Both the position numbers and the translations under genes were made by a program. A DNA stretch of 64,000 bases. It comes from Mucilaginibacter celer. Its GTDB lineage: Bacteria > Bacteroidota > Bacteroidia > Sphingobacteriales > Sphingobacteriaceae. Location of the stretch: contig NZ_CP032869.1 in NCBI RefSeq assembly GCF_003576455.2, forward strand, positions 682,001-746,000. Reading direction: 5' to 3'. The notes beneath the pieces are model-generated. The model saw only the letters and a list, made by a program, of their open reading frames with translations. It was not told the DNA's origin and made no database searches. Shown piece by piece: positions 3,594-61,888 of this stretch; position 1 is the stretch's first letter; each line of letters opens with the position of its first letter.

Positions 3594-3706
3594 AGCCAGA
3601 ATAATGCCATTGCTTATATGCTTGTTTTACAGTATGTTGCGGTTGTGTTGTTTTTGGAGCGTTATGTTATCTCGTAAATCGGCGGGCTTAATCCGAAATA
3701 GCGAAA
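3594..3706 (-). promoter_or_regulatory. Sigma-54-like promoter with paired upstream sites (AhpD-hydrolase operon)
   Basis: The -24/-12 element is TGGCATT-ATTC-TGGCT, reading from 3609 to 3594 on the minus strand. GG and GC are spaced as sigma-54 needs. Upstream cores lie at 3666-3673 (GAGATAAC in transcription sense, 64 bp from the -24) and 3695-3702 (29 bp further), in inverted orientation with a 21-bp gap. Confidence 0.7.
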
Positions 3707-3738
3707 CGGCTGCTGGTCCTGCCGCTAGCCCGGCCGGT

Positions 3739-4599
3739 TTATTTATGGACCGGTGGCAGCCCGATCTCCCGCCTTCTGAAATTCAGGCTGTCCGCGTTTT
3801 CAACAGGTAAGGGCAGGTTGTCCGTCCCCAGCTGGGTACCGTAGATCTGTCTGCCCTTATCTTTTAACGCGATTCTGTCAGCGATATCGGCAAATCGTTT
3901 CGCGTCAAATGTTCCCTTCCTAAAGGCGGCGGAGATCATGGGGAAATACCGTTTCTGGTCGCTGAAACTTAATTTCCAGAACAGGTAGATCATGGAATCG
4001 ACGCCCCGCTCATCGATCTGATCGGCGCTCATCCAGCCCCAGCTCCTGATCATCGAAAGCAGCTTGATCGAATTCACGCTGTCCCGCTCATGCGTGGTAT
4101 CCCGGTAAGCCAGGTATCTTTTCGAACGGGATCCAAATTTTTTTGCCAGCAGCATCAGCCGGGTATCCATTTTTAAGCGCTCCTGGTGGAGCGAATCCAG
4201 TTCTTTCGCGTTTGCGCCCAAATAGCTGTCAAGCGCGGATTTCAGCCGGATCCAGCGTGCGTCATGTTTGAATTTCAGGTAATCGGGGTCGGAGAGGATG
4301 TACACATAATCGCTATGGGCTTTACGGGTGACGATCAGGGTCAGGCAGCTGAACATGCTGTCGGGAAGCCCTGCCCGCATACAGATCTTCGCTGTTTTGA
4401 GCAGGTTCGCATTGCTTCTGCAAACCGGGGATTCGTCAAAGGCCTGGAAACAGAGCCTGGCGGCTGCCTGGTATTGTTTCCGGCTGATCAGGGTGTCTGC
4501 CTTAAGGAACAGCGCATCGCAGGCAGGTCTGACCTGTGCACCGGCGGTAACCACGGACAAGATACCTAACAGGGCGGTAATGAATAATTTACAGTTCAT
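3739..4599 (-). CDS. Secreted DUF6624-like protein
   Basis: A 286-residue protein with an N-terminal signal peptide (hydrophobic residues 4-20, cleavage near AGAQ). Its second half matches the DUF6624 pattern: a WGWMS segment in place of the usual GxP, then DRIALKDKGRQIYGTQ, a D-L-P-L-P run and a terminal RRREIGLPP. The N-terminal half is helical and TPR-like, with several cysteines. DUF6624 proteins are common in Bacteroidota and have no known biochemical role. It lies 95 bp downstream of the NmrA gene, with a hairpin between them, so it may be only partly co-transcribed. Confidence 0.75.
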   Translation of the reverse strand: MNCKLFITALLGILSVVTAGAQVRPACDALFLKADTLISRKQYQAAARLCFQAFDESPVCRSNANLLKTAKICMRAGLPDSMFSCLTLIVTRKAHSDYVYILSDPDYLKFKHDARWIRLKSALDSYLGANAKELDSLHQERLKMDTRLMLLAKKFGSRSKRYLAYRDTTHERDSVNSIKLLSMIRSWGWMSADQIDERGVDSMIYLFWKLSFSDQKRYFPMISAAFRKGTFDAKRFADIADRIALKDKGRQIYGTQLGTDNLPLPVENADSLNFRRREIGLPPVHK

Positions 4600-4622
4600 C
4601 GGGTTAAGGTTTAAAAGCAGCA

Positions 4623-4645
4623 GGGGCAGAGCATATCCATGCCCC
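4623..4645 (-). terminator. Probable intergenic terminator
   Basis: A GGGGCA/TGCCCC stem closes an 11-nt loop. On the minus strand it is followed after a few bases by CTTTTAAA. It lies between the NmrA gene ending at 4695 and the DUF6624 gene starting at 4599 and may attenuate read-through. Confidence 0.45.
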
Positions 4646-4694
4646 GCCCCGTTTTAATGATGCGGCTCCTGTCCCTCATCACCTGCTGTTTGAT

Positions 4695-7147: not shown

Positions 7148-7260
7148 CTCCAAGATGGTGCCTGTATGTAAATTATTGATTGTTAGTTATTTGTGTTTTT
7201 GTCTGTATTTGTAATTTACTTTATCTCATAATTCAACCGGAATCATTCGATATATCATAG
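7148..7260 (-). promoter_or_regulatory. Sigma-54-like promoter with paired upstream sites (NmrA 6226)
   Basis: The element AGGCACC-ATCT-TGGAG reads from 7163 to 7148 on the minus strand; the -12 half is imperfect (GA instead of GC). Upstream cores are at 7220-7227 (64 bp away) and 7249-7256 (GATATATC), separated by 21 bp. Confidence 0.55.
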
Positions 7261-8594: not shown

Positions 8595-8721
8595 AAAGGT
8601 GTATGCGGCGGTGGATTTTTGTCGCGAAGCGTGATACCAGGAAGCCATTGGTGATCCCGTCTTCGGATCACTAAGCTGCAAGCCTGACGTGCTACCATAT
8701 GAAGTATTAAAAACGGTTCAA

Positions 8722-8805
8722 ATGCGAAATAAAGTAAAGAAAATAAAGGAGAGGTTGTTTAAATGTTTATGAATTAGTTGTTTAGGATGTGGCACTTTAA
8801 TGGTG
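8722..8805 (+). promoter_or_regulatory. Sigma-54-like promoter with one upstream site (DUF302 operon)
   Basis: Upstream site ATGC-GAAATAAA-GTAA is at 8722-8737. The element TGGCACT-TTAA-TGGTG is at 8790-8805; its -24 half is perfect and its -12 half has GT for GC. Core to -24 distance is 64 bp. No second site is seen at the usual spacing. Confidence 0.6.
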
Positions 8806-11522: not shown

Positions 11523-13463
11523 ATGAAAGAGAGTATATTGATTGTCGAAGACCAGTTTATAGAAGCAAATGACCTGCGTTCTACGCTGGAAATGGAGGGC
11601 TACCTGGTTTGCGGGATCGCCAGGTCCGTCGCACGCGCGCTGGAACTCATCAGAAGCAAGGCTCCTGACATCGTTATTATTGATATTCTTCTACAGGGCG
11701 CGCCGACCGGTATAGATCTGGCCAAACAACTGATGTCACAGAATATGCCTTTTATCTATCTTTCGGCTAATTCCAATAATTCAACCTTCAACGAAGCAAA
11801 AAAAACGCAGCCCGACGGTTTCCTGGTTAAGCCCTTCCGGAAAAAGGATGTCCTGATCGCCCTGGAGATCGCAACCTACAGATCCAGGTATAAAAGAGAG
11901 CTGCTCCAGCGTCACGCGACCTGGCTTAACGGTTTGCTTTCAGAAGTTTATGAAAAGGAAGTCCCTGCGGAGGAAAAACTGAAACTGATGTTGAAAGCAT
12001 TTCAGCCGCTGATCCCGTTCGAACTTTTATTGGTAGATCTTAATTCACTCTCGGAGCCTTTACTGGGTTTTAAACGGGTCAGCTTCGACGAGTATGAGGC
12101 TATCGACCTTCACGGTTCCAGTCCGCTTGCCGGTTCGGTCAGGGATATGAATGAATTCAGGCAGCCTTACCTGACAGGACAGCAGATCTACTACCGTAAC
12201 GGTGAAGACTTCCTGGAAAGAAGCAGGAACGGTAAGATCATTAATCAGATCGTAAGTGACTTTGACATTAAATCAGAACTGACCGTCAGGATGCCTGGTA
12301 TCAGGGATACTGCCGGCGGAGTTTGTTTTTACAGTTCCCTTGCGGACAGTTTCAGTAACGAACATGCAAAACTGATCATTAGTGTGCTACCGGAACTGAC
12401 GTTGCTTGTCGGGCAGATACAGGAATTCTTCTTAAAAACAAAACCCAAAGTACGGCCCTCGGTAAAAGATGACCTGTCCGTTTTGAAGCAGTTAACCTCC
12501 AGGATAGTAGGCAAAAGCCCCAAACTGCTTTTTGCGCTCGACCAGGCGGTGCAGGTTGCCCAGCACGATACCTCCGTCCTTGTACTGGGAGAAACAGGTG
12601 CGGGCAAAGAGGGCATCGTGAATATTATTCATCATTTATCACCGAGGAAAAATAAACCCTTCGTTAAAATCAATTGCGCTGCTATCCAGGAAACCCTGGT
12701 AGAATCCGAATTGTTCGGTCACGAAAAAGGGGCCTTTACAGGTGCATTTGAAAGACGGATCGGAAAGTTTGAACAGGCCCAGGGGGGAACCATTTTTCTC
12801 GACGAGATCGGCGAACTCCCGTTGGATATTCAGTCCAAGCTTTTAAGGGTTATACAGGAAAAGGAGATTGAGCGTTTGGGTGGGCACCAGACGATCAAAA
12901 CAGATGTCAGGATCGTCGCGGCAACCAACCGCAACCTGGATAAAGAGGTGGCGCTGGGCTTTTTCCGGATAGACCTCTATTACCGGCTGAACGTATTCCC
13001 GATTATGGTCCCTGCATTGCGGGAACGTAAAGAGGATATTCCGGCGCTGGCCGAATTTTTTTTGAAGGAACAGGCGAAATTGTCCGGCCAGCCGGAAAAG
13101 AAACTGGACCCCGTAATGATGGCAAAGTTTGTGGAATATTCCTGGCCGGGGAATATCAGGGAATTGAAACATCTGATCGAACGGTTTGCGATCATGTCAA
13201 AGGGAACGGTCATCTCCAGGCTGGAAATACCCGTAATAAAGGAGGGCACGGCGACAGTAATTGTTTCAGCTCCGGCAAAAGAATTTCAAAGCATTGACGA
13301 GATTGAAAAAACACATATCATGGCGGCTATAAAAAATTGCAAAGGAAAAATTGCCGGCGCGGGCGGGGCCGCGGAGGTCTTAAAGATTCCGGTGACGACT
13401 TTGCGTTATAAAATGAAAAAACTGGGAATCGGATGGCACTACTTTCATGATGATCCCCAATAA
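11523..13463 (+). CDS. Sigma-54 enhancer-binding response regulator (REC-GAF-like-AAA+-Fis HTH)
   Basis: A 646-residue regulator. The receiver domain (1-120) is complete: acidic pocket Glu9/Asp10, phospho-acceptor Asp54, Ser81 and Lys103. A GAF-like sensory or linker region spans about 130-310. The AAA+ domain (about 325-565) has Walker A GETGAGKE (356-363), the sigma-54 contact loop GAFTGA (403-408) and Walker B with Asp427/Glu428. Arginine-finger residues lie in the [12 protein letters not shown] stretch. A Fis-type helix-turn-helix (about 603-636, [18 protein letters not shown]) ends the protein. It should hydrolyse ATP to open sigma-54 promoters when phosphorylated. The kinase gene starts 44 bp downstream and is the likely partner. 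It is the only one of the four with the canonical GAFTGA loop and an intact receiver. Confidence 0.92.
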
Positions 13464-13507: not shown

Positions 13508-16012
13508 ATGCAATGGGTTGATAACCGGCTTTTATCGGGTCTAACAGGATATAGCCTGTGCCGAATTGGCTTATCCGGGCTTTTTCTATTAGCTTCTTTG
13601 TTTGCCAGGGCGCAATATCGAGGTACCCCCGCGGCGCTGAATGCTGCCCGGATCCAGCTTTGTTCCGGTTTACTGACCGTGGCTAAAGATGCGGGGGTTG
13701 ATCTGGACAGTACCCTGGTACTGGCCAGTCATGCGAGCCGGATCAGCCGGGTTCCGGTCATTATGGAAGATATGACCGGTGATTACGCGGCGGAAAGCCT
13801 GACGTGGATGGATAAAGGACAGCAAAAGGTTTTCGAGCAACGCATCGCAGGTGAAAAAGGAGAAGCACACGCGAAAGACATGCTTGCCCTGGGCGCTTAC
13901 CTGGCGTTCAGCCCGGGTTTGAGCACTGTCCGGAATGATCAGGCCATTAATGTGCTGAATCAGGCGTTGAGAGAACTGGCGGCGTGTAAGCTGAGTCGCC
14001 TGTATGCGCAGGGGCTTATCTTAAAAGGTAAGTGCCTGATCAAAAAAGTGGATACGCTGGCTGGCGTACCATGCTTTGATATCATCAAAAGCGATCCGCG
14101 GTTCAGAAACGATAAAAGGCTGATGGCAAAAGCGCTGACCTACGAAGGTACGTATTATCCTTACCTGCCTTCTACGTCCCCGTTAAGGATCAAGTTTTTA
14201 CAGGCGGCTGTGAAAATTTATCAGGAACTTAAGGATGAGATAAGCCAGGTGAACGTGCTTCAGAACATCGCTTATCTGAGTTTCGCGGCCGGTAAACCTG
14301 ACCGGACGCTGGCAGCGGTTCAGCAGACTTTGGCTATTCAACATGAAATTAAATTTCCTTACACCCATTATTCAACCGATCTGCTATGTTTTCTTGCCTT
14401 TATCCGCGGAGATTATCCCAGGGCACTTTCTATAGCCGTCGAGTCCGTCAGGACCGCAGAAATGACTAAAGATAGTATAGGCCTGGCTTATTTCTACCTG
14501 CGGGTATCTGACGCCTATTGGGCAGCTGATGGCCACAGCGCTGAAAGTAACCTCTGGGCAAATAAAGCGTTACGGGGATTTATGAAATACGGCGGTGACG
14601 CCAGTCTTTACAGGGTTCTTGGTAACATGGATTTGGTACATTACAGCTACGGAAGCAGTAAAAAGCTGCTCCGGCTGTTAAATGGGATGATGAAAAGCTA
14701 TCCACCGAGGAATACCATACAGCGACAGGACCTTTACAGCGTTTTTGGTTCCTGTTACGAAGAGATCGGTGATTTCAGAAATGCCGAAAAGTACTATCTG
14801 AGCGCAGTAGCGCTTGCCGATAGTAACGATTTTTCGACAGCGAACCGTTTCCGAGGGTATGTATACATCTCTATTGGTAATTTTTATATTCATAGGAAAA
14901 ATTATTCCAGGGCCAGATCTTATTTTATCAGTTACCTGACAGGGAAACCAGGAAGGGGCGCTGAGTGGGCTTACCGGCTTGATGCCTATCATTCACTGTT
15001 TCGGATCGATTCAGCACAAGGCAAATTCGATGCCATGAAAAATTTGTATCAGTTTTTCAGATTGCGTGACAGCATATATACGGGTCAGAAAAATAAAGCA
15101 TTTGAAGAATTAAATGTGAGGTATCATACATTGCAGAAGCAGAAAGACCTCGACATGTACCGGTCGAAAAGTCTGCTTCAGCAACAGGAGGCCAGGGCTT
15201 CCCGACGGAACATGTATATCGGCTTTGCCGCTCTTTTGATCGTTATATTATTTATACTGGCGCGCTTTATCAGCAAGCAGAAAAGCAACCGCCTCTTAAG
15301 TCTTCAGAAAGAAGAGATCGACAAAAAAAACCATCTGCTGGAAACTATCGTTCGGGAAAAAGATGAGCTGCTGGTCTCTAAAGAATGGCTGCTTAAGGAG
15401 GTGCACCACCGGGTAAAAAATAATTTGCAGCTGGTAATGAGCCTTTTAAATTCGCAGACCAATTACCTGAAGGACGAGGCGGCGATGAAGGCGGTGCTGG
15501 AAAGCAGGCACCGGGTGCTGGCCATGTCCCTGATCCATCAGACCTTATACAGTTCTGAAAATGTTTCAAGCATCGAGATGGGCAATTATATCCGGACGGT
15601 CGTTGAGCAGTTGCAGGAAAGTTATGAGACAAGGGGACATATTTATATCGAGTTGCAGATCGAGCAATTGCGCCTCGACGTCAGCCTGGCTGTCCCGGTT
15701 GGCCTGATATTGAACGAGTTGGTTACGAACGCGATAAAGCATGCTTTCGAACTCAGGGACGCCAACCGGATTGTAGTATCCTTTTTTAAGTCGGCCGAGG
15801 AGGAGATCACGCTGATCGTTGCAGATAACGGGAAAGGCATCCCCGGTGACCTGGACACCTCAACCACAGGCTCATTCGGAATAACGCTGATCAATGGTCT
15901 CACCGAAGATTTAAACGGGAACTTTTCACTGGAGAATCTTGCTGGAACAACTGCTACACTGGTATTTCGATATGAAGATGTATTCAGCAGGGCGTCGTTA
16001 TCGGAACTTTAA
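13508..16012 (+). CDS. TPR-containing HisKA_2 sensor histidine kinase
   Basis: An 834-residue membrane kinase. An N-terminal signal or anchor helix (about 20-36) is followed by a roughly 500-residue periplasmic-like array of TPR helices. A transmembrane helix (about 572-592) and a coiled coil lead to a HisKA_2 dimerisation domain with phospho-acceptor motif HHRVKNNLQ (His633/His634). The HATPase domain has N-box LNELVTNAIKHAF and G1 DNGKGIP. All catalytic motifs are intact. It is the probable cognate kinase of the regulator at 11523. The TPR region is also shared with the degenerate kinase at 47458 (for example YYPYLPSTSPLRIKFL against YTPFLPSTSGMRIIFL), so they are close paralogs. Confidence 0.92.
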   Translation: MQWVDNRLLSGLTGYSLCRIGLSGLFLLASLFARAQYRGTPAALNAARIQLCSGLLTVAKDAGVDLDSTLVLASHASRISRVPVIMEDMTGDYAAESLTWMDKGQQKVFEQRIAGEKGEAHAKDMLALGAYLAFSPGLSTVRNDQAINVLNQALRELAACKLSRLYAQGLILKGKCLIKKVDTLAGVPCFDIIKSDPRFRNDKRLMAKALTYEGTYYPYLPSTSPLRIKFLQAAVKIYQELKDEISQVNVLQNIAYLSFAAGKPDRTLAAVQQTLAIQHEIKFPYTHYSTDLLCFLAFIRGDYPRALSIAVESVRTAEMTKDSIGLAYFYLRVSDAYWAADGHSAESNLWANKALRGFMKYGGDASLYRVLGNMDLVHYSYGSSKKLLRLLNGMMKSYPPRNTIQRQDLYSVFGSCYEEIGDFRNAEKYYLSAVALADSNDFSTANRFRGYVYISIGNFYIHRKNYSRARSYFISYLTGKPGRGAEWAYRLDAYHSLFRIDSAQGKFDAMKNLYQFFRLRDSIYTGQKNKAFEELNVRYHTLQKQKDLDMYRSKSLLQQQEARASRRNMYIGFAALLIVILFILARFISKQKSNRLLSLQKEEIDKKNHLLETIVREKDELLVSKEWLLKEVHHRVKNNLQLVMSLLNSQTNYLKDEAAMKAVLESRHRVLAMSLIHQTLYSSENVSSIEMGNYIRTVVEQLQESYETRGHIYIELQIEQLRLDVSLAVPVGLILNELVTNAIKHAFELRDANRIVVSFFKSAEEEITLIVADNGKGIPGDLDTSTTGSFGITLINGLTEDLNGNFSLENLAGTTATLVFRYEDVFSRASLSEL

Positions 16013-17809: not shown

Positions 17810-17924
17810 GGCTATTTTGATGCCATTGGTTAAGTTGTTGATAGTTAGATCTTTGTGTTTTATTGTGATAGGTGTTGATTACGATATATCATATTTGTGC
17901 AAATGAAGCAATGATATCCCGTAC
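17810..17924 (-). promoter_or_regulatory. Sigma-54-like promoter with paired upstream sites (hydrolase-NmrA operon)
   Basis: TGGCATC-AAAA-TAGCC reads from 17825 to 17810 on the minus strand, with GG and GC correctly spaced. Cores lie at 17883-17890 (GATATATC, 65 bp away) and 17913-17920 (weaker), separated by 22 bp. Confidence 0.7.
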
Positions 17925-18067: not shown

Positions 18068-18180
18068 TCACGTTATATCGTTTTTAGTTTGTTTATTTAC
18101 GAAATAAAGTAATTTGCATGCTGTTTTATTTAAATTTGTATCTGTATATCAATTAATTATGAGTTGGAACGATATTCGCA
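18068..18180 (+). promoter_or_regulatory. Sigma-54-like promoter with paired upstream sites (five-GAF regulator)
   Basis: TGGAACG-ATAT-TCGCA is at 18165-18180. Cores are GTTATATC (18072-18079) and GAAATAAA (18101-18108) with a 21-bp gap; the proximal one, TTAC-GAAATAAA-GTAA, is a perfect consensus 16-mer 64 bp from the -24. It implies that the regulator gene is itself a sigma-54 target. Confidence 0.72.
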
Positions 18181-18273: not shown

Positions 18274-21200
18274 ATGAAAAGATTTGATACAGGTGAGATT
18301 ATGCCGGGGACCGCATTGCTGAACGGACCATACAGTAACCTGCTGAGCGCGGCGATCCGTCGTATTTTAAATGTTACGAGCAAACAGGAGCTTAAGCTGG
18401 TCATCGAAAATGCGCTCCGGGAATCCCTTCAGTTTAATTCCTATCTGCTGTTAAAGAGAAATTCAGCGCATACCGCCTTTGAAACCTATTTGTCCGATGA
18501 CGCCTTGCAGGATGCCAGGCTGCATCTGCCAGTTAATGACCCTTTTATTGAAAGTTTAAAGCAGGGGCCGGGAATCCGGTTTGTTTCTGCAGGAGACATC
18601 AGGCACTCGTTTCAGTTTTCGTCGAAATCAAAAACGCTTTCAGCGGTACCTGCCGCCGATCTGGCTGTGGTTAACCTCTTTGAAGGCGAGGTGCTCACCG
18701 ATATCATGCTCTTTTTTGCAGAACATGCCGGCGTGCTTCCGGCTAAGGATAAGGAAATCAGGGCTTTGTTACCTGTCCTGACGAGCTGCATGAAAATCGT
18801 GTCGCTGACAGATGATAATCGGCGTCTCGACTATGAAAAGGAAATTCTCCTGGCACTGCTCGATGATATTAATGGGATAAAAGACAAGCAGACACTGTTG
18901 GCGACGATTTATGAAAGGTTGAAGTTTCTGATCCCGTTCAATGATATCTGGATTACCTGTATCAATTCGGATAAGAAAACCTACCGTTTTTTGGATAGTC
19001 ACTTTGATGAGAAGCGTCGTGACCTCCCGGCGCTAAGCCGCTTTGCTTCCGCGGAATATTCGCTCACCAACCGGATGATCAGTATTCTGTCGTCACAATC
19101 GAACCCGGTCAGGTTTGGTGCTGAGGTGTTAACCGATATCGGAAACCCGGGTGAGATCTCCGGGGTTTTTCAGGAGACAGGCGTAAACCAATTCCTGGCG
19201 ATGCCGCTTAAGGACGGCAAAACCAGTTTTGGCGGGATTTACCTCGCTACGGAGTCAAACGTGCTTTTTACAGATCATCAGTTGAGGATTCTACGGACCA
19301 TGGCCGGCCGTTTGTCGCTTGCCATAACCGGAATGCAGCTTGCAGAAAATCTGAAAGAAAAAGAAGCTGAAAAATCTGCCCTGCTGGCACTGAGCGGGGA
19401 AATAGCCAATATCCGCGATCAGAAACAGTTGCTGGAGATTGTAAAGGGCACCATCAAAAGGCTGATCCCATTCAATGATATTTCCGTGACCCTGTACGAT
19501 TTCAAAAAGAAAACGCATTACGGGTATCTGGTATCCTGCGAGGCCCGGCGGACCGAGCATCCTGAATTTATGGAAGCGTCCAAGGTGCACTCGCCGATCA
19601 ATGATTCCGTAGTCGACCAGACACTAGCGAGTGATAAACCTGTAATTTTTCGGGTCAATGAACTGATCAGGTTACCAAATCCGTCCAGGTATATCGATTT
19701 CTATCACAAAACAGGGATAGTTGAATTTGTCGGGACATCCATGTATAACAAAGACGGGATTTTTGGCGGCCTTTATATTTTTGCCGAACAATATAACACA
19801 TATCATCCCAAACAATTTGATCTGATACAGGGGATAGCCAACCAGCTTGCGGTCACCATATCCAATATACTTGCTTACGAAGAGCTGCTGAGCAAGGAAG
19901 AAGAGAAAGGCATCCTGCTCGCCGTCAGCAACGATCTGGCCAGCATCAAAAACAAGTCGGATCTGTTAAAAGTGCTTCACAATCACCTGAAATCAATCTT
20001 TTATTTCGATCATGCCTTGATCGCCTTGTGCGACAACGCCAGGAAGGTGTACTATGGTTATGTATTCGATCCGAATTCCAAATGCCTTGGACATCCCGAT
20101 TATCAGAATGTATGTGAGATGGAGTATAGTATGGACGATACGATCATACATGCCGTTCTGACCTCTGACAGACCCAAGGTATTTGATATAGCCAATGTGA
20201 TCCTTCAAAATGACTGCCCGGCATATATGCATATGAATTATGATTCGGGAATGCGGGAGGTTGTATTCGCACAGCTGCATTCCGGGAACAACCTGATCGG
20301 GTTCCTGATGCTCATGTCTGACATCAAAAACAGTTTCAGCCTCCAGCAGCTTGAACTGATCCGGGGTTTGTCTTATCAGATGTCCAACGCCGTTGCCAAC
20401 ATCGTCGCTGACGAAAAGATCCGGGAAAAAGACAATGAAAAATCGATCCTGTTATCCATGAGCAATGACCTGGCGGGCGTACGGATGACAACAGACCTGT
20501 ATAAGGTATTGGACCAGCGGTTACGCAGCCTTTTCAGTTACAGCCATTTTATGCTGGCCAGGGTAACGGAGGACGGGAATTCCCTATCCGCTATGATCCT
20601 CGATCCCAGGTCTAAAAATAAGATTCACCCAGATTACCAGGACTTCGTATCTACCAAAATTCCGATTAATGACGGGTTCTTCAACGTTGCGTTTGAAACC
20701 GGCCGGCCGGTACTTTATCATTTGGGGGATATCATCAACAGGACTGATCTGCCCGGTCATGTGAGGATGAGCTACAGCAGCGGGATTAAAGAAATGATAT
20801 TGATCGGCCTGAGCAACGGACAAAGAAGAACCGGCATGCTGGGTATCTTTACTGAAGAGTCAAACAAAATAAAGGCAGAGCACATCAATCTTCTTCATGG
20901 TATCTCCTCCCAGTTAGCTACCGGGGTTGCCAATATTCTCGCCAATGAGAAAATAGAACAGCAGGTGCTGGAAATTTCCAATTTTAAAAAACAGCTTGAA
21001 GTGGAGAACCTTTATCTTCAGGAAGAGATACAGACCACGAATAACTATAGCGAAATCGTAGGCAACAGTACAGCGCTCCGCGATGTTTTCCGATTGGTTT
21101 CCAGCGTTGCGCCTACCAGCAGCTCTGTATTGATACTGGGGGAAACCGGTACAGGTAAGGAACTGGTCGCACGTGCCATTCATAATTCTTCTCCGAGGAA

Positions 21201-27330: not shown

Positions 27331-27363
27331 ATTTTCTGACTGATGACAGCGTGTGGAAAAGTA

Positions 27364-44438: not shown

Positions 44439-44521
44439 TATGAAATAAGGTCAAATCTTGATTTCTTTAATATGACATATCTCTGGTAACCAGTTATTTG
44501 CGAATAGGCACGAATTTGGTA
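44439..44521 (+). promoter_or_regulatory. Sigma-54-like promoter with upstream site (small membrane protein)
   Basis: Site TTAT-GAAATAAG-GTCA (44439-44454) and AGGCACG-AATT-TGGTA (44506-44521) are 63 bp apart core to -24. The rest of the 44042-44594 gap shows no other gene. Confidence 0.5.
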
Positions 44522-45333: not shown

Positions 45334-45724
45334 GCCGAAGGCATTAAATTATTGTAGCCTGGACCCTAAACTCTGCATATTAAGTGGTTCGTCTACCATT
45401 TAACAAGAAATAGGATATTGGTTTCCCTGAACGATAGACTTTTCTGGTATTTGAATTTTGATAGTAAGCACATTTTTGATAGCAAAATGCCCGGGTACGC
45501 TAAGCCTGCGTTAGAGACAGCCGGATTGCAATGAAATTCCGGCTGGCTCGTTTGGCTACCGTTATTTACCGTTTGGTTTACGGTGTTTGAAAATATGATT
45601 TATCTATATTAAGATTTGTGCCCGGAGTTAGGGATAGCTGAACTTTATATTAAATGAACAATAAAAACAGAAAGAATGCACAATTTTTTTTCCTCATGCT
45701 TTTTTGGGTTTTTGATTTCGTTTA

Positions 45725-45809
45725 ATTACGATATATCGTAATGTAAAAGATTTGTTATTGATTTAACTTATTGGTTTATAGTTGATTGTTTTGTGGTATG
45801 GGTTTGGCA
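45725..45809 (+). promoter_or_regulatory. Sigma-54-like promoter with an 18-bp perfect palindrome (split-kinase operon)
   Basis: ATTACGATATATCGTAAT (45725-45742) is a perfect palindrome containing TTAC-GATATATC-GTAA. TGGTATG-GGTT-TGGCA (45794-45809) has correctly spaced GG and GC, 64 bp from the core. It is probably the best single site for defining the binding protein. Confidence 0.72.
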
Positions 45810-45880: not shown

Positions 45881-47449
45881 ATGTTGAAATTCGTTTTTAT
45901 GATTATTGGTACGCTGTCTTTATCCTTATGCAGGGAACACAGTAAAGCCGGAATAACCGGCGGGCGTTCTTACCGGTTATATCCAGAGATGGACTGTGGT
46001 CGCCGGTTGAGAATTGTTGTAGCATCGTTGCCGAAAACAAAAAAGTCCCTTTCAGTTAACCAGGTTTATGGAAACTTGCTGTTAACACTCGATACCCTGA
46101 TTTTTAGTGGCCGGGAGAATGATGCCTACAGCTTGTTGAGGGGAACGCTTAGGGAAGTCCCCGCGTCTAGTCTGCAAAGCAGGTTATACAAAGCAAAGGC
46201 CTGCGGCGATGTATTCTATGCGCTCAAAAAGCCGGAAATAGCTAAAGATTATTACCTGTTACTTTTACGGCTGGCCAGCCAGGCTAAAAAGCCTTATCAC
46301 CAGATGCTTGAAGACTGGTTATCCTCAGCCGCGTTTGTAAAGGTAAATGATCAAAGCCGCTTTCATTATCGTACAGCCAGCAATTATCTCAATAAAGAAC
46401 TGATGTCCGAAGGCCCGTTATTAAATCAGCGATTCCGTGCGGGGTTTTACCTGAATTTATTCCGTTTGAACTCAGCGGCAAAAAATTATAAACGATCATT
46501 TGATTATTACCGTGAATATAAATTGATAAGTGATTCGCTTTTCAGGCAGGCGAACTTACAGGAATTGAACCATGTAAGGCGAGCATATATGCCGTCCGGT
46601 ATAGCAACGCCTGTCGTCAAGCGGGAGCGAAAAACAAGATCTGGAAATACTATATATTTATTGGAATCATTCGGCATAGTTGTCGTGATTTTATTGGGCC
46701 TGTTGATATCCGGCATGAAGACCGCACGCCGGAAAAACTACGTCAATCAATTCTTGAGTACAGATACAAAGCTTTCGCCGCCCGGGGAGGCCTTATTGAA
46801 AATACTTGAGGAGCAGGACAGATTGAAGGAAGAAACCGAAGAATTGCTGAGGGAAGCGCATCATAAGGTTAAAAATAATCTTCAGCTCGTAATGAGCCTT
46901 CTAAGCAGCCAAACTAAGTACCTGAGCAACGGTCTAGCCATCGACGTGATCGACGAAAGTCAGGAACGACTGCAGGCAATGATGATTCTGCATCAGAGAC
47001 TTTATGGCATTGATGAAATAACAAGCATTGATATGATGGCCTATATCAGTGAACTAAAAGTTTACCTGTCGGGAAAACTTTCTGAGAAAGGCCTGGAGAC
47101 TGAAATCAATATAAGGATTGACCGGATATCGCTGGTTAATACCGAAGCTGCGCTTTTGGGCCTCTTTATCGGAGAAGCAATCTCCAATGTGATAAAAACC
47201 CTCAATAGCAATACTCTGTCATGTACAATTGCTGTCTGCCTGGCCGTCCGCCAACCAGGTTTGGTCCGAGCCTCGGTCACATCTCAGATATCTTCTTCAG
47301 TTGTCAGGAACTGCGCATACGATCTGGGCAGCGCTCTGATGATGAAGGCCTTAAGCGACCAGTTAAACGGTTTATTCCTGATAGAACTGGAAAATGGTCT
47401 GACGGTAAGTACCGAATTTTATTACCAGAAAGAAACCGCCCATTACTAA
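45881..47449 (+). CDS. Kinase-like protein with phospho-acceptor His but degenerate ATPase domain
   Basis: A 522-residue protein, much shorter than its TPR-kinase paralogs because the N-terminal repeat array is reduced. A transmembrane helix lies at about 260-278. The HisKA_2 motif is HHKVKNNLQLVMSLL (His327/His328), so the acceptor is kept. The HATPase domain is damaged: the N-box reads IGEAISNVIKTLN (first Asn lost, second kept). The G1 motif that is DNGxG in paralogs is SQISS, losing the adenine-binding Asp and both glycines. The later LGSALMMKALSDQLNG segment still aligns. It probably cannot bind ATP productively by itself. The next gene starts 8 bp downstream and has the opposite defect. 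Confidence 0.88.
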   Translation: MLKFVFMIIGTLSLSLCREHSKAGITGGRSYRLYPEMDCGRRLRIVVASLPKTKKSLSVNQVYGNLLLTLDTLIFSGRENDAYSLLRGTLREVPASSLQSRLYKAKACGDVFYALKKPEIAKDYYLLLLRLASQAKKPYHQMLEDWLSSAAFVKVNDQSRFHYRTASNYLNKELMSEGPLLNQRFRAGFYLNLFRLNSAAKNYKRSFDYYREYKLISDSLFRQANLQELNHVRRAYMPSGIATPVVKRERKTRSGNTIYLLESFGIVVVILLGLLISGMKTARRKNYVNQFLSTDTKLSPPGEALLKILEEQDRLKEETEELLREAHHKVKNNLQLVMSLLSSQTKYLSNGLAIDVIDESQERLQAMMILHQRLYGIDEITSIDMMAYISELKVYLSGKLSEKGLETEINIRIDRISLVNTEAALLGLFIGEAISNVIKTLNSNTLSCTIAVCLAVRQPGLVRASVTSQISSSVVRNCAYDLGSALMMKALSDQLNGLFLIELENGLTVSTEFYYQKETAHY

Positions 47450-47457
47450 AGACAGCC

Positions 47458-49860
47458 ATGCTAAAAATAGTATTTACTTCAGCATTTATTTTCTCAGCGT
47501 GGTCCGTCGCAGCACAAGTACCAGATAGCAGCCCTAACAACAAAGCGCTGATGCTGCTCAGTTCCGCTTTCATCACAGTTTCACGTGAAGCTGCCATTGA
47601 TCTGGACAGCTCATTGGTGCTTACAGCAAAGTATCACCATCTCAGCAGGGCAGTTCTGATCTCCGAGGGGATAGACGACGCATATGCGATCAAATGCTGC
47701 CGCTGGATCGATGACCGGAACACCAGTGTACCTGAAAACGAAATAAAGCAACTGCACGGGAGCCGCAAAGTCCGCCTGCAAATGCTGCTCGGCGCTTATT
47801 ACGCTTTTCAGCCGGGATTCCGTAAAAGTGACACGAAAAGGGGGATATATTGGCTCAGGCTGGCTGAAAAAGGAAACAACGTTGTAAATAACCATAATTG
47901 GGGAATGCATATCAACTGTTTGCTCGGGAAATGTTACCTGAAATCCGGAGCGATTGGTAGGGCGAAGGAATGTTTTCGTAAAGTCACTGCCTCGCCGTAC
48001 TTTACCGATCAGCGGATTGTTGCCAAGGCCTGGAATTACGAGGGGATGTACACGCCCTTTCTTCCATCGACTTCCGGCATGAGGATAATTTTTCTGACCA
48101 GGGCCTGCAAATTATTTTTTAGGGTCCGGGATGAAGGAAACAGGGCCAATGCCTTGGCTAATATAGCATACCTTAATTTCGCCAGGCAAAACTTCCGCGA
48201 TGCAGAAATGGCCGCCATGGAATCTCTCCGCGTTCAGCGGTATGCGGGCATTCCATATTCGCATTACACCACTGATCTGCTGAGCCTGATCGCGCAGATG
48301 AAAGGAAATTATGTCGGGCACCTGCGATGGGCATTGGAATCCATCAGGTCAGCTAACTTTTCCGGCGACCACATGGAGCTGGCATTATTCTATGCCAGGG
48401 TGGGCGATGCCTACGCGACCAGTTCCGATAAGAGGGGAAATGCAGTGGTCTGGTACAAAAAGGCGCTCAGTGAGTTTTTGAAGAACAAGGACGGCAGGCA
48501 TGCCTATAAACTGCTGATCCGTTTCTATAATGAAGATTTGAGCAGTTCGGAAAGCAACCCGCTAATTGGATTGATTAATCGCCTGCTTATCGCGAGTCCG
48601 CCTGAGAATACCATTGATCAGCAAGATGCGTACATTGCATTGGGGGAGGCATACCGGAGAATGAAGGACTATAAAAAAGCAGAAAAGTATTTCCTGGAGG
48701 CACGGGGACTGTCCGCTGCCAATCAAAGGATCAGGGGAAAGATGAACGACGGGAACCTGAATTTTTTATTAGGACAATTTTATTTTCAGGCCGGAAACCT
48801 GCCGAAAAGCAGGAGGTATCTTACCGCGCTCGTCCGGGATTCTGCCGCCAGCCGGGAAGCGGCCGGAAACCTGGCAGAAGCTTACTGGCTGTTACACCAG
48901 ATCGATGCTGGCCTAGGAAAGTACGTCTCATCAATGCATTACCTTCAGTTACACAATCAACTCGCGGATTCCATCCATCATATAACCGACCAGCCTGGAT
49001 ACGCTGCGATATTTAAACTGCCAATGTCCAGGCCGGTCGTTCCCGTAAACAGCGCGAGTGCGGCTTCCGGCAGTGCGCGCATCAACGTTACCGTTTTGGT
49101 TTTGATTGCCTTAACGCTCATCGGTTTTGGCTGGGTGCTGATCTCCCGGTTTAAGGTGAGCATCAGAAAATTGCTCGATAATCAATATCAAAAGCGGCTG
49201 CTGGCAGAAGCGACACGCAAACAAATAGGACTTTTAGCATCCAGGGAAAAGCTTCTCAAGGAAGTTCAGTTCAGGGTTCAGGATAATCTTAAGATCATCA
49301 TCAGCCTGCTGAGCCGCCAGTCTGATTTTATTACTGACCAGGATGCGCTGGAAGCTATCGGGCAAAGTCAAAGCCGGATGATGGCCATGTCGCTTGTCTA
49401 CGGACTGGTGGAACCGGAAAACGAGCATACCGGCGTTAATCTTGCCGCTTATGTTTCAACACTCGTAGCTTTTTTGCAAGAGAACCATCAAAAGGCAAAA
49501 TATATACGGTTTGTCTTGAACCTTGATCCCGTTCATGTCGACCTTTCCAAAGCAGTTCCCCTGGCTCTGATGGTTCATGAGATTCTTACGAACAGTATCA
49601 GGCATGCTTTTCTATTTCAGGAATACCCCGAAATAAATATCGAACTGCAGCTGCTACCCGGCGAACCTGTTCGTTTGTTTATACAGGATAACGGCTCCGG
49701 GCTTCCGGATGACCTTGACCCGGTGACCAGCCGCTCGTTTGGCTTCAGCCTGATAGTGGGACTGGCATCCCAGATAGATGCGCTGCCGGTCTTCCGTAGC
49801 CACATGGGCCTTGCGGTCGAAATCAGTTTTGCGTTACAGGAAGAAAAAAACCTTGGATAA
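47458..49860 (+). CDS. Kinase-like protein with intact ATPase motifs but no phospho-acceptor His
   Basis: An 800-residue protein; the ATG at 47458 begins a clear signal peptide (MLKIVFTSAFIFSAWSVAAQ), whereas the longer frame from 47221 lies inside the preceding gene. A large TPR array closely resembles that of the kinase at 13508. A transmembrane helix is at about 544-562. At the dimerisation domain the motif is KEVQFRVQDNLK: both histidines of HHRVKNN are replaced (Gln604, Phe605). The ATPase keeps EILTNSIRHAF (Asn712) and DNGSGLP (Asp744, Gly746, Gly748), followed by SFGFSLIVGL. It could phosphorylate a partner in trans, the obvious candidate being the product of the gene just upstream. 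Confidence 0.88.
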   Translation: MLKIVFTSAFIFSAWSVAAQVPDSSPNNKALMLLSSAFITVSREAAIDLDSSLVLTAKYHHLSRAVLISEGIDDAYAIKCCRWIDDRNTSVPENEIKQLHGSRKVRLQMLLGAYYAFQPGFRKSDTKRGIYWLRLAEKGNNVVNNHNWGMHINCLLGKCYLKSGAIGRAKECFRKVTASPYFTDQRIVAKAWNYEGMYTPFLPSTSGMRIIFLTRACKLFFRVRDEGNRANALANIAYLNFARQNFRDAEMAAMESLRVQRYAGIPYSHYTTDLLSLIAQMKGNYVGHLRWALESIRSANFSGDHMELALFYARVGDAYATSSDKRGNAVVWYKKALSEFLKNKDGRHAYKLLIRFYNEDLSSSESNPLIGLINRLLIASPPENTIDQQDAYIALGEAYRRMKDYKKAEKYFLEARGLSAANQRIRGKMNDGNLNFLLGQFYFQAGNLPKSRRYLTALVRDSAASREAAGNLAEAYWLLHQIDAGLGKYVSSMHYLQLHNQLADSIHHITDQPGYAAIFKLPMSRPVVPVNSASAASGSARINVTVLVLIALTLIGFGWVLISRFKVSIRKLLDNQYQKRLLAEATRKQIGLLASREKLLKEVQFRVQDNLKIIISLLSRQSDFITDQDALEAIGQSQSRMMAMSLVYGLVEPENEHTGVNLAAYVSTLVAFLQENHQKAKYIRFVLNLDPVHVDLSKAVPLALMVHEILTNSIRHAFLFQEYPEINIELQLLPGEPVRLFIQDNGSGLPDDLDPVTSRSFGFSLIVGLASQIDALPVFRSHMGLAVEISFALQEEKNLG

Positions 49861-50419: not shown

Positions 50420-50503
50420 TTAAATAATTGTGCCTGTTTTTATGTTGTTGATTTGTAGGTATTTGTGTTTTTTTTAATTGAATATTCTTACGATTTGTCG
50501 TAA
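50420..50503 (-). promoter_or_regulatory. Upstream site with weak sigma-54-like element (gene 50094)
   Basis: TTAC-GATTTGTC-GTAA (50488-50503) has perfect outer arms. AGGCACA-ATTA-TTTAA reads from 50435 to 50420, exactly 64 bp from the core; the -24 is good, but the -12 lacks GC. Confidence 0.45.
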
Positions 50504-50761
50504 ATCAACAAATCCTGTTCCTCGTTTTCGTATTGTGGCCGCGACCAGTGCAAGGCCGCAGACAGCCGATGTAAAAGAAACGTCAGGCCATATTTGTGTT
50601 TTTCTATGGTTTTTCCGGCATTACCCGGTCCCTTATAGCCCAGTCCTGATCATTGATGGTAAAAACCCGGATCTGCCGGTTTCGCGGCCGTCCCGATGCA
50701 GGCATTTGAGATGCTTTCGAATGGAGAACATCCTTGAAGTTCGGTTGCAGGTCTTACCGAT

Positions 50762-50847
50762 TTACGATATAAAGAATTTTTGTTAGTCCTTTGGTTTTTA
50801 TAATTTACTGATTTTCAGGATTTTGTTGTTGTGGCATTTGTTTGGAA
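50762..50847 (+). promoter_or_regulatory. Upstream site with sigma-54-like element ahead of the RND operon
   Basis: Site TTAC-GATATAAA-GAAT (50762-50777) and TGGCATT-TGTT-TGGAA (50832-50847) are 66 bp apart, core to -24. A 29-codon ORF (50866-50955) follows directly and may be a leader peptide or chance. The RND adaptor starts at 51088, about 230 nt downstream. Confidence 0.5.
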
Positions 50848-52218: not shown

Positions 52219-52229
52219 TCTTATCAGCC

Positions 52230-55400: not shown

Positions 55401-55402
55401 TC

Positions 55403-56890: not shown

Positions 56891-57141
56891 GAAAAGATCG
56901 TAACAGAGCAGGATGATGAATATTATTACACAATGCTGATTACCGATGACGAAATTGTTTTGGTAGATGACTTTGAACTTGAAGAGACAATTTGTTAGGT
57001 GTGACCTTTATGCAGAGGTTAACAGTTCAAATCCAAGGTGAGCTGTTTTCCATAGCGACACTTGTAAAAAGATTCCATTCGCTTTAATGATTAAAGTTAA
57101 TGGAGTAAGACCTATGGCATACAAAAAGAAACGGGTTTAAT

Positions 57142-57224
57142 TGCGAAATAACGTAGTGTTTTTTAAGGGTGTGTCTTGCAATTGGCTGTAAATTAAATAT
57201 TTGCAAATTGGCATAAGAAATGAA
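57142..57224 (+). promoter_or_regulatory. Upstream site with partial sigma-54-like element (DUF1304 gene)
   Basis: Site TTGC-GAAATAAC-GTAG (57142-57157) and TGGCATA-AGAA-ATGAA (57209-57224) stand 63 bp apart. The -24 is perfect; the -12 has GA for GC. Confidence 0.45.
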
Positions 57225-59542: not shown

Positions 59543-59658
59543 ACAAGATCATATCGTTTTAAAAAATGCCGATTTACGAATTAAAGCAAATAATATCTGT
59601 ACAAGAATATTATAATGTATTATAAAACAAATCATTATAGTCTGGCATCATTATAGGA
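59543..59658 (+). promoter_or_regulatory. Sigma-54-like promoter with paired upstream sites (SDR operon)
   Basis: Cores ATCATATC (59547-59554) and GAATTAAA (59577-59584, in TTAC-GAATTAAA-GCAA) are 22 bp apart. TGGCATC-ATTA-TAGGA (59643-59658) stands 66 bp from the proximal core; the -12 has GG for GC. The leader would be about 19 nt. Confidence 0.55.
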
Positions 59659-59686
59659 GTTTGATTTCAAAAACACACAAAATTAT

Positions 59687-60517
59687 ATGGAAAAAGTTTG
59701 GTTTATAACCGGAGCCGGAAAGGGTTTCGGCCTCGAAATCGCAAAAGCTGCACTTTCAGTGGGGGACAAAGTTATTGCAACACTACGGAAAACCGGATCT
59801 GAACTTGAGTCCGTGTTAAAGGACCATAAGAATTTGTTGATTCTAAGAATGGACGTTACCAATGAATTACAGGTTAAACTTGCTGTAGATGAAGGTATCA
59901 ACCATTTTGGCAAAATTGACATTGTTGTCAACAATGCAGGATTCGGTTTAATAAGCAGTGTTGAAGAAGCTTCTGATAAAGAAGCAAGAGGTCAGTTTGA
60001 TACCAATGTATTTGGGATTCTAAATGTAAGCAGGGCAGTGCTTCCTTACCTGCGTAAACAAAGAAGTGGACACGTAATTAACATATCAGCTTACTTTGCT
60101 TTTGGTACTATTCCCGGCTGGGGAATCTATAGTGCTACGAAGTTCGCGGTGGAAGGTCTTTCAGAAGCGATGGCGATGGAGTTGAATCCTTTGGGCATCC
60201 AAGTTACTGTTGTCGAACCGGGCATGTTTCGTACCAATTTTCTTGATGAGAGCTCATTTGTGCAGGCCGATTTAATTATTGAAGACTACGATCAAACCTC
60301 TGGTAAAATAAAAGCGCTCACTTCTCAATTTAACGGAGCGCAACCGGGTGATCCAAGTAAATTGGGACAGGCCTTGTTAAAACTGGTCAATTTAGAGAAC
60401 CCACCTGTCCACCTTCCATTAGGAAAGGATTGTCTCGACTTTTACGAAAAGAACAAGTCCCTTCGTGAAAATGAAATGGTGAAATGGAAAGAAATGATTT
60501 TGAGCACGGACTTCTAA
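59687..60517 (+). CDS. Classical short-chain dehydrogenase/reductase
   Basis: A 276-residue classical SDR. Cofactor motif TGAGKGFG (8-15), NNAG (82-85) and the catalytic Ser134, Tyr148 and Lys152 (YSATK) are all present. Arg34 just after the second strand (ATLRKTG) favours NADPH. It probably reduces or oxidises a carbonyl or alcohol substrate that cannot be named from sequence. It leads a two-gene unit with the protein at 60546, 28 bp away. Confidence 0.92.
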   Translation: MEKVWFITGAGKGFGLEIAKAALSVGDKVIATLRKTGSELESVLKDHKNLLILRMDVTNELQVKLAVDEGINHFGKIDIVVNNAGFGLISSVEEASDKEARGQFDTNVFGILNVSRAVLPYLRKQRSGHVINISAYFAFGTIPGWGIYSATKFAVEGLSEAMAMELNPLGIQVTVVEPGMFRTNFLDESSFVQADLIIEDYDQTSGKIKALTSQFNGAQPGDPSKLGQALLKLVNLENPPVHLPLGKDCLDFYEKNKSLRENEMVKWKEMILSTDF

Positions 60518-60545
60518 TACACGATTCTTACAATCAACCAATAAA

Positions 60546-61265
60546 ATGAACGATCTTTTAACATTGGCTGTAGCGGCCCACGGCGGTTTAGATCGCTGGA
60601 AAAAATTTAAATCAGTAAAAGTTCATGCTTCCATAACCGGCGCGATATGGCATGTAAAAGGCAGGCCTGATGTCTTGAAAGATGTTATTATGACTGCTGA
60701 AACTCACAAAGAGAGACTTATTATGGACTTTCCCGGGAAAAATAAAAAAACAATTTTTGAGGCAGAAAAAATTTCTGTAGCAAACGGAGAGGGTGTAGTT
60801 TCAAAAGTATTTGAGAATCCAATAATGTGTTTTGAGGGTCACCTACGTGATACTCCCTGGGAAGACGTACATGTAGCGTATTTCAGTGGGGAGGCCTTAT
60901 GGACATATCTTACGACGCCATTTTTGTATACCTATCCGGGGTTTGAAACTGTGGAGATTGAACCCTGGGAAGAAAATGGCGAGATTTGGAGGCGTCTAAA
61001 AGTAACTTTCCCTGACTACATAGCAAGTCACACAAGGGAGCAAATATCATTCTTTGGACCTGATGGCCTGCTTCGGCGACATGATTACACAGTTGATATA
61101 CTTGGCGGAGCAACAGGGGCGAACTATGCGACAAATTATCGGGATGTAGATGGTATCATAATACCAACTTCAAGAAGAATATATGCATTTGAAGGAGACC
61201 ATATCGCAGTTCCTGAACCTCTTTTGGTTGCTGTGGACATGGGTGAGATCTCATTTTCAAGTTGA
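60546..61265 (+). CDS. Conserved hypothetical protein, possibly LolA-like fold
   Basis: A 239-residue protein without signal peptide. It opens with an AVAAHGGLDRWKKFKSVKVH segment of the kind seen in outer-membrane lipoprotein-sorting (LolA-like) relatives, followed by alternating beta-strand-like stretches; this is only a resemblance. It probably shares a transcript with the SDR upstream. Function unknown. Confidence 0.65.
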   Translation: MNDLLTLAVAAHGGLDRWKKFKSVKVHASITGAIWHVKGRPDVLKDVIMTAETHKERLIMDFPGKNKKTIFEAEKISVANGEGVVSKVFENPIMCFEGHLRDTPWEDVHVAYFSGEALWTYLTTPFLYTYPGFETVEIEPWEENGEIWRRLKVTFPDYIASHTREQISFFGPDGLLRRHDYTVDILGGATGANYATNYRDVDGIIIPTSRRIYAFEGDHIAVPEPLLVAVDMGEISFSS

Positions 61266-61804
61266 TGGGCTGATCGCATTTATTTAAAATGCAATGGCGG
61301 GAATTTAAGTTGCAAAATAAAAATTTGGCTTGCATTTGTTTATTCCAGATGTCTGCGATTTAAACGGGCGACATATTTCCAAGACATCCTCGGCATTCGT
61401 GCGCAGCGTAAGTTCCATTAGTGCCGAGGGTGGTTTAGAAATAATCAAAGCGATCACTACAAAATAAGAAAAATGCTTTGAAGAGTATGAGTGCTTTCTT
61501 TAGGTATTTCCTGAAATAAAGATTCAGTTATTGAGTAGGGTATAAGCAGTTGGGAGGCCGCGCTTTTCGATAGGCGCCCTTATGTGTTAACATCAGCATT
61601 ATCTTATTGATACGCAATTTTGACAATACTCTATTACAAGATGGAACCCATACTAAAGCAATCTCAGGGCGGTTTCGATAAAGTCGTGAATTACTGAAAG
61701 TTCTTTTTATAATATATCTTAATGATTTTAATCCTGGCACTGCGAAACTGTCAAATTTGTGGTCGCTTAACAACTTTCTTTTTCTATATACTGAAATTGT
61801 TGAT
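61266..61804. other. Gene-poor stretch with one stem-loop
   Basis: I see no supportable gene. An 8-bp perfect stem CCTCGGCA/TGCCGAGG (61388-61395 with 61422-61429) encloses 26 nt; it lacks a T-run, so it may be a transcript-end structure rather than a terminator. A minus-strand frame at 61528-61773 has no recognisable features. Confidence 0.35.
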
Positions 61805-61888
61805 TTATGATATAAAGAAACAAATTTTAAATGATCGTTTCGGATTCAATTGATTTGCAATGTTATATGATATGGCATTAAAATGGTT
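61805..61888 (+). promoter_or_regulatory. Upstream site with sigma-54-like element (MFS 61901)
   Basis: Site TTAT-GATATAAA-GAAA (61805-61820) and TGGCATT-AAAA-TGGTT (61873-61888) are 64 bp apart. The -12 has GT for GC and overlaps an upstream ATG at 61883. A transcript starting near 61898 would be almost leaderless for the ATG at 61901. Confidence 0.45.

What the first reader, a model, noticed from the sequence alone, without database searches (positions are those of the whole stretch)
3594..61888. A window-wide sigma-54-like regulon: 18 promoters with an enhancer-type 16-mer at fixed distance
A -24/-12-like element (TGGCAT-N5-TGGCA type) occurs upstream of 18 units. The positions are 3594, 7148, 8790, 17810, 18165, 22828, 26831, 27315, 34329, 35693, 41538, 44506, 45794, 50420, 50832, 57209, 59643 and 61873. 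In every case a TTAC-GAWATAAA-GTAA-like site has its 8-bp core 63-66 bp upstream of the -24. GG and GC have strict sigma-54 spacing in about eight; the others have one mismatch at -12. The constant distance across unrelated genes on both strands is hard to get by chance. I know the sigma-54/enhancer model; the consensus and targets are read here.
Basis: partly seen in the sequence, partly recalled or inferred. Interest (0 to 1): 0.93.

Follow-up and report, generated by a model that had tools for sequence, protein, structure and literature searches.

The report
Sigma-54 regulon with fixed bend ruler
Eighteen control sites in this stretch of a bacterial chromosome, and about as many just outside it, share one rigid layout: a 22-letter activator-type site, then a palindromic block that looks like a DNA-bending site, then a sigma-54-type promoter at nearly constant spacing; the layout likely lets four related activator proteins encoded in the same stretch switch on a cluster of predicted detoxification and efflux genes.

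Summary
All 18 sites exist: the enhancer 16-mer starts 68 (12 sites), 69 (4) or 70 (2) bp upstream of the -24 element; 200 resampled windows gave none. The genome has one rpoN and 19 strong sigma-54 activators; the only four at 596-791 kb lie in this window.

The enhancer is a 22-mer, GTTGAWTTAYGAWATAAAGTAA, with a second dyad 29-30 bp upstream in 20 of 36 promoters. Eighteen more promoters flank the window; 640 kb elsewhere had none at the threshold. A third block, YAANNNNYTGATWATCARNNNNTTR, centred 18 bp upstream of the -24, was not used for selection and recurs in 17 of 18 flank promoters. It is a recalled IHF consensus in both orientations; the genome has one HU/IHF-family gene, which suggests a homodimer.

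Beside related activators of the same genus the same ruler occurs with other letters around the GAWATA core. Class-wide spread is suggested, not settled. No binding or transcription was measured.

The parts
3594..3683 (-). Promoter 1 (22-mer enhancer to -12), d=68, upstream of CMD/AhpD-like gene 3028-3564
7148..7237 (-). Promoter 2, d=68, upstream of NmrA gene 6226-7101
8716..8805 (+). Promoter 3, d=68, upstream of two DUF302 genes and an MFS gene
17810..17900 (-). Promoter 4, d=69, upstream of alpha/beta hydrolase 16948-17760
18091..18180 (+). Promoter 5, d=68, upstream of GAF-type sigma-54 activator 18274-21999 (likely autoregulation)
22828..22917 (-). Promoter 6, d=68, with distal inverted copy; upstream of 240-aa ORF 22064-22786 (no Pfam match)
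26831..26920 (-). Promoter 7, d=68, upstream of MFS gene 25247-26797
27241..27330 (+). Promoter 8, d=68, with distal inverted copy; upstream of kinase, activator and kinase genes 27343-34172
34253..34344 (+). Promoter 9, d=70, with distal inverted copy; upstream of NmrA gene 34544-35419
35618..35708 (+). Promoter 10, d=69, upstream of alpha/beta hydrolase 35790-36605
41537..41627 (-). Promoter 11, d=69, upstream of OEP and HlyD efflux genes (39948-41255, 38826-39926); overlaps doubtful ORFs
44432..44521 (+). Promoter 12, d=68; a 72-aa ORF starts at 44595, no ORF of 80 aa or more on this strand within 1.3 kb downstream
45720..45809 (+). Promoter 13, d=68, perfect palindrome TTACGATATATCGTAA; upstream of HisKA_2 kinase frames
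50420..50509 (-). Promoter 14, d=68 (lowest -24/-12 score), upstream of 98-aa ORF 50094-50390
50756..50847 (+). Promoter 15, d=70, upstream of HlyD, AcrB-type and OEP efflux genes 51088-56821
57135..57224 (+). Promoter 16, d=68, upstream of DUF1304 gene 57306-57731
59568..59658 (+). Promoter 17, d=69, upstream of SDR gene 59687-60517
61799..61888 (+). Promoter 18, d=68, upstream of MFS gene 61883-63304 (the mechanical ORF start lies too close, so the true start is likely further in)
18135..18159 (+). Example of the IHF-like palindromic block (25 bp, -30 to -6 of the -24 T); at the same place 15 of 18 window promoters have >=7 of 9 fixed letters in one orientation
11523..13463 (+). Sigma-54 activator, receiver + AAA+ (GAFTGA) + Fis-type HTH
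18274..21999 (+). Sigma-54 activator, GAF + AAA+ (GSFTGA) + Fis-like HTH (aligned, no Pfam HTH_8 match)
29698..31662 (+). Sigma-54 activator, receiver + AAA+ (GAFTSA) + Fis-type HTH
42110..44134 (-). Sigma-54 activator, receiver match below cut-off + AAA+ (GAFSGA) + Fis-type HTH
13508..16012 (+). TPR + HisKA_2 histidine kinase
27343..29676 (+). TPR + HisKA_2 histidine kinase
31725..34172 (+). TPR + HisKA_2 histidine kinase
45881..49860 (+). Two overlapping HisKA_2 kinase reading frames (45881-47449, 47221-49860)

Best explanation
These 18 sites are likely sigma-54 promoters of one regulon, each made of an activator-type dyad (often a pair), a palindromic IHF-like block predicted to bend the DNA, and a -24/-12 element, held at near-constant spacing. 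Sequence shows directly: the 22-mer GTTGAWTTAYGAWATAAAGTAA starting about 74 bp upstream of the -24; in 20 of 36 promoters a second, inverted dyad 29-30 bp further up; the block YAANNNNYTGATWATCARNNNNTTR centred 18 bp upstream of the -24; GG-N10-G(C). Inferred: RpoN-RNA polymerase sits silent on -24/-12; one or more of the four activators encoded in the window, phosphorylated by the TPR-HisKA_2 kinases or, for the GAF protein, triggered by a ligand, bind the dyads; the single HU/IHF-family protein, as a homodimer, bends the DNA at the palindrome so that the activator meets polymerase and remodels it by ATP hydrolysis. A fixed bend would explain why the spacing barely varies. The targets (NmrA and SDR oxidoreductases, alpha/beta hydrolases, an AhpD-like protein, MFS and RND efflux, kinases and activators) suggest a response to toxic small molecules with autoregulation; the signal is not known.
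For: Two blocks: 18 of 18 in the window, 0 in 200 resamplings, 0 in 640 kb elsewhere. rpoN with box ARRTVAKYRE. Of 19 strong activators (7 weak PF00158 matches left aside) four lie at 596-791 kb, all in the window, with GAFTGA-type loops and alike HTHs. Third block, not used for selection: the window-trained matrix scores 5.9-20.8 in 17 of 18 flank promoters, background mean -15.8, 99th percentile 2.2; >=7 of 9 IHF-type letters in one orientation in 31 of 36 promoters, 2.4% of background 25-mers. Distal dyad: best inverted match at -29/-30 in 20 of 36 among 64 offsets. One PF00216 gene in this genome, and exactly one in 38 of 41 genomes of the genus, own included. Test in 20 stretches of congeners picked by activator protein only: 24 bend+(-24/-12) promoters, 15 with GAWATR at -64 to -67; conversely all 10 enhancer-selected pairs at 63-66 bp have a bend score >=10.
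Against: No transcription start, binding or mutant data. The C of -12 is kept in 7 of 18. 10 of 36 promoters overlap reading frames by more than 20%, four of them wholly, and 5 of 36 have no ORF of 80 aa or more starting within 300 bp. In 16 of 36 the best inverted match is not at -29/-30. An eight-pair symmetry test peaked at the enhancer in the island (-60) but not in the larger other own and congener sets. One flank promoter lacks the bend block. In 10 of the 20 congener stretches no such promoter was found. Which activator acts where is unknown; the one at 29698 has GAFTSA, which might weaken sigma-54 contact.
Confidence: 0.63

Rival explanations
1. The sigma-54 promoters and activator sites are real, but the middle block is not an HU/IHF site: it is a contact of polymerase (alpha C-terminal domain, sigma-54) or the site of another palindrome-binding protein.
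For: Bend and binding are inferred from letters alone; the IHF consensus is recalled. A paper says IHF proteins are found almost only in proteobacteria (PMC5683647, passages). The HU-family protein is below the curated cut-offs of every IHF and HU model it matched, and its single-domain PDB matches rank HU above IHF.
Against: The block matches the recalled IHF consensus in both orientations as a 25-bp dyad, as expected for a homodimer; the genome has one HU/IHF-family gene, and among NCBIfam models IHF beta scores best (63 bits; HU-beta 48).
Confidence: 0.3
2. The promoters look alike because promoter-gene units were copied recently in a paralogous gene cluster, not because spacing and letters are selected.
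For: The region holds many paralogues: NmrA genes, hydrolases, kinases, activators.
Against: Spacer letters at -50 to -31 are no more alike than after shuffling (0.282 against 0.282), while the blocks stay; the same layout occurs in congeners.
Confidence: 0.04
3. The 22-mer is the site of a repressor or of an activator of another sigma factor and the GG/GC letters are coincidence.
For: TetR-type regulator genes lie among the genes of the region.
Against: GG is kept in 18 of 18 at a near-constant distance, rpoN and four sigma-54 activators are present, and two activator genes lie downstream of such promoters.
Confidence: 0.03

Closest known systems
NtrC/NifA-type sigma-54 regulons of Proteobacteria with IHF-assisted looping (nifH class recalled; the role of IHF is stated in passages of PMC11150451)
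   Same: -24/-12 promoter, upstream dyad for an AAA+ activator, IHF-type site between them
   Different: Near-constant enhancer position over 36 promoters, an IHF-like block in nearly all of them and palindromic, one HU/IHF-family gene instead of an alpha/beta pair, promoters packed around four activators that appear to share one enhancer type
Two-site NtrC enhancer of glnAp2 (recalled)
   Same: Two activator dyads about three helical turns apart
   Different: Here 29-30 bp apart, with a one-sided GTTGA beside the proximal dyad, and fixed close to the promoter
Sigma-54 promoter survey by matrices over many phyla (PMC12316311, passages found by term search)
   Same: Predicts sigma-54 promoters in Bacteroidota too
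   Different: Term search of its text found no IHF, integration host factor, UAS or spacer; no fixed enhancer distance in the passages seen
Single homodimeric HU/IHF proteins such as Borrelia Hbb (homodimer recalled; a single HU/IHF protein in Spirochaetales is stated in a passage of PMC5683647)
   Same: One HU/IHF-family protein, so a specific site would be met by a homodimer
   Different: I recall no link of those to sigma-54 promoters and did not search for one

Membership tests
sigma-54-dependent promoters | GG-N10-GC (-24/-12) | tested here: inconclusive
   GG 18/18, G of -12 17/18, C 7/18; strict in 7
sigma-54-dependent promoters | rpoN in the genome | tested here: met
   one PF04552 match, box ARRTVAKYRE (box motif recalled)
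sigma-54-dependent promoters | start about 12 bp after -12, lost without rpoN | not testable with these tools
   no RNA data
bacterial enhancer-binding proteins | AAA+ Sigma54_activat domain with GAFTGA-type loop and HTH | tested here: met
   four in window; loops GAFTGA, GSFTGA, GAFTSA, GAFSGA
bacterial enhancer-binding proteins | binds the dyad seen upstream of its targets | not testable with these tools
   co-location only
IHF-assisted sigma-54 promoters | IHF consensus WATCAANNNNTTR between enhancer and promoter | tested here: met
   >=7 of 9 letters (R allowed for the last A) in one orientation in 31 of 36, background 2.4% (consensus recalled)
IHF-assisted sigma-54 promoters | IHF alpha/beta heterodimer encoded | tested here: not met
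   one PF00216 gene only, below IHF model cut-offs
IHF-assisted sigma-54 promoters | protein binds and bends the site | not testable with these tools
   none

The most novel reading that the evidence does not exclude
Bacteroidia use a standard sigma-54 promoter ruler: an activator dyad centred about 60 bp and a palindromic bend site centred about 18 bp upstream of the -24, the latter read by a lone homodimeric HU/IHF-family protein that does the job of proteobacterial IHF. New regulons arise by changing only the letters flanking the dyad core, and here four paralogous activators and some 36 promoters form one compact regulon island.
Probability: 0.42. Interest if true: 0.82.

Novelty: new variant of a known kind. 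Interest (0 to 1): 0.7.

Why it matters
Activation from a distance by enhancer-binding proteins is usually described (as I recall it) with variable enhancer positions and optional IHF. A genome with near-constant geometry, a bend-like block in nearly every such promoter and a single candidate bending protein makes the question of what sets the enhancer-promoter distance directly testable, gives a matrix for finding sigma-54 targets in Bacteroidota, and points to a homodimer that may do what an IHF heterodimer does elsewhere.

Tried and rejected
Single-block 16-mer genome scan: 76 hits against 52 for the reversed control, too weak alone. Genome-contig scan with an activator alignment drew AAA+ proteins from many phyla; it was not used beyond its best named hit. 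Eight-pair contiguous dyad test: peak at -60 in the island (4.6 SD of its own profile), a weak one at -61 in five promoters around other activators (2.1 SD), none in the other own or congener sets. Exact -24/-12 pattern over 60 class genomes: of the 30 loci taken (one match from each of 30 genomes), 2 had the bend block at -31 to -28 (0.44 expected per four offsets); most look like chance sites, so it says little. GAWATR was not at a fixed place in those 40. Recent duplication: disfavoured. Structure prediction and fold search were not run.

Caveats on counts: the stretches were picked mostly around hits of model R1, which contains the enhancer, so enhancer positions in those sets are partly circular; the cleaner tests are (stretches picked by activator protein; 20 stretches covering 23 of the 41 matches listed in other genomes, and a 24th in part) and the flank set for the bend block. 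R2 was built from 54 own promoters and contains the bend block, so its class-wide hits speak for the block only against the reversed control R3.
Full report
Setting. The window is C1:682001-746000 of a 7,149,106-base genome in one contig with no name given. The best named activator hit is Chitinophaga sp. S165 (55% identity over residues 341-650); with the gene families this fits Bacteroidota (inference). No call names the genus.

Observation. Each listed position was read out and rescored. All 18 have GG of a -24 element with an enhancer-like 16-mer upstream at 68 (12), 69 (4) or 70 (2) bp. With matrices built from the 18 sites, leave-one-out scores were 17.5-30.2 bits for the enhancer and 6.8-19.1 bits for -24/-12. 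The pair (>=14 and >=6 bits, 66-72 bp) occurs 18 times in the window, 0 times in each of 200 first-order resamplings, 0 times in 400 kb at 20 spread places, 0 times in 240 kb around other activators, and 13 times in 152.5 kb flanking the window. The offset was 68 in 19, 69 in 9 and 70 in 3 of 46 enhancer hits, and at most 1 at any other.

Anatomy. Its core is a dyad, TTAC-N8-GTAA, perfect at promoter 45794. A second dyad, best read inverted, starts 29-30 bp upstream: best of 64 offsets in 20 of 36 promoters; in three of four regions asked it forms inverted repeats of 17, 12 and 18 nt (34329, 27315, 22843).

Third block. Columns of the 'gap' are conserved although nothing there had been used to pick sites. 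In 18 window and 18 flank promoters alike (thresholds 10 and 5 bits at 66-72 bp) the pattern is YAANNNNYTGATWATCARNNNNTTR at -30 to -6 of the -24 T; A at -29 in 16 and 18, A at -14 in 17 and 18. The matrix from the window alone scores 5.9-20.8 in 17 of 18 flank promoters and -6.6 in one; background mean -15.8, 99.9th percentile 7.7. The right half is WATCARNNNNTTR, the left half its mirror image: the IHF consensus as I recall it. At least 7 of 9 fixed letters in one orientation: 15 of 18 window and 16 of 18 flank promoters, background 2.4%; both halves together >=13 of 18 letters: 15 and 16, background 0.23%.

Proteins. One PF04552 (RpoN) gene, box ARRTVAKYRE. PF00158 gives 26 matches, 19 of them strong (E <=2.2e-64); at 596-791 kb only the four of this window. 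Their loops are GAFTGA, GSFTGA, GAFTSA and GAFSGA. Of 18 activators whose C-terminus could be read (one of 19 could not), 11 including these four share an HTH with an inserted stretch before GAA (GGAA in most) and TL-x-SKMKKLGI-like letters. PF00216 finds one gene, 98 aa, at C1:5222273; PF18291 finds the same place only. Is it IHF or HU? Mixed: PDB single-chain IHF scores 72 bits, but over two stretches; single-domain chains rank an HU chain (1b8z, 55 bits; Thermotoga from recall) above IHF beta and alpha (44); among NCBIfam models IHF beta is best (63), HU-beta 48, all below cut-off. Among 41 genomes of the genus, own included, 38 have one match, two have two (one of these below cut-off) and one, 58% complete, none. 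PMC5683647 (passages) states that IHF proteins are almost only in proteobacteria. A specific site here would thus have to be met by a homodimer, and a palindrome fits that.

Extent. The 36 promoters span 596020-791103; one more, at 765.5 kb, lies across the border of two fetched stretches and shows only. With model R1 (built from the 18), of 23 further own hits at E <=1e-4, 15 lie at 596-791 kb, 2.7% of the genome, and 8 outside (my count from its table). 26 of 36 overlap reading frames by at most 20%; 31 of 36 have an ORF start within 300 bp. Spacer letters between enhancer and bend are no more alike than shuffled, so the layout is not a trace of recent copying. In 40 other genomes (24 of the genus, 16 of the class) the best R1 match reached only E 6.6e-7, so this exact enhancer type looks particular to this genome among those searched.

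Beyond this regulon. Related activators exist in 18 other genomes among 61 of the genus, own included, at E <=1e-120, best identity 51%. In 20 stretches around them (395,851 bases) 24 promoters were found by bend plus -24/-12 alone, in 10 of the 20 stretches; 15 have GAWATR at -64 to -67, of 20 such hexamers at all upstream places counted. Selecting by YGAWATR plus -24/-12 and ignoring the bend, 28 pairs lie 40-109 bp apart: 10 at 63-66 bp, all with a bend score of at least 10.1; of the 18 others 5 reach 5. Flanking letters differ between places, so core and position are shared and the outer letters vary. Over 149 genomes of the class, the bend plus -24/-12 model matched 109 and the same model reversed 42; own genome 40 (the number scored) against 0. 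Promoters fetched from those hits carry other dyads, such as TTCC-N5-GGAA: 8 of 38 centred at -64 to -57, shuffled mean 1.8, though the neighbouring bin held 7. This is suggestive, not settled.

Mechanism. Shown: the letters, their spacing, the protein families and the clustering. Inferred: sigma-54 dependence (which I hold at about 0.9), activator binding, bending (about two in three), signal. Genes downstream include NmrA and SDR oxidoreductases, alpha/beta hydrolases, an AhpD-like protein, MFS and RND/OEP efflux genes, and activator and kinase genes, which suggests a self-reinforcing response to toxic small molecules.

Literature. Ten full-text searches were judged by their listings; none listed a paper that seems to describe this layout, and the last (sigma54, IHF, Bacteroidota) found no paper. 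Of three papers I saw passages only (PMC12316311, PMC5683647, PMC11150451). The library lacks most subscription journals.

Changes after checking. The IHF-or-HU ranking and the blunt peak were mended; confidence in the full mechanism and in the class-wide reading was lowered for that reason.

Noticed in passing
45881-49860: Two overlapping kinase reading frames: the first has a HisKA_2 match but no ATPase match, the second TPR, HisKA_2 and a partial ATPase match; an odd or split kinase pair.
   Followed up: no
29698-31662: The activator has GAFTSA in place of the GAFTGA loop, unusual for a protein that should contact sigma-54.
   Followed up: partly
L002-L020 (own activators): Eleven of 18 readable activators share an HTH with an inserted stretch that the other seven lack; it may define the group that reads GAWATA dyads.
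   Followed up: partly
L222, L223, L228, L229, L231: Other sigma-54-like promoters of the genus carry CGTAC/GTACG-type or similar letters upstream, perhaps another activator's sites.
   Followed up: no
L160-L162, L041 (2172-2234 kb of own genome): A second cluster of bend+(-24/-12) promoters beside activators 2188424 and 2197320, with GCGAAATATCGC-like enhancers; looks like a sister island.
   Followed up: partly
44595 onward, + strand: 72-aa reading frame with a hydrophobic stretch just downstream of promoter 12.
   Followed up: no
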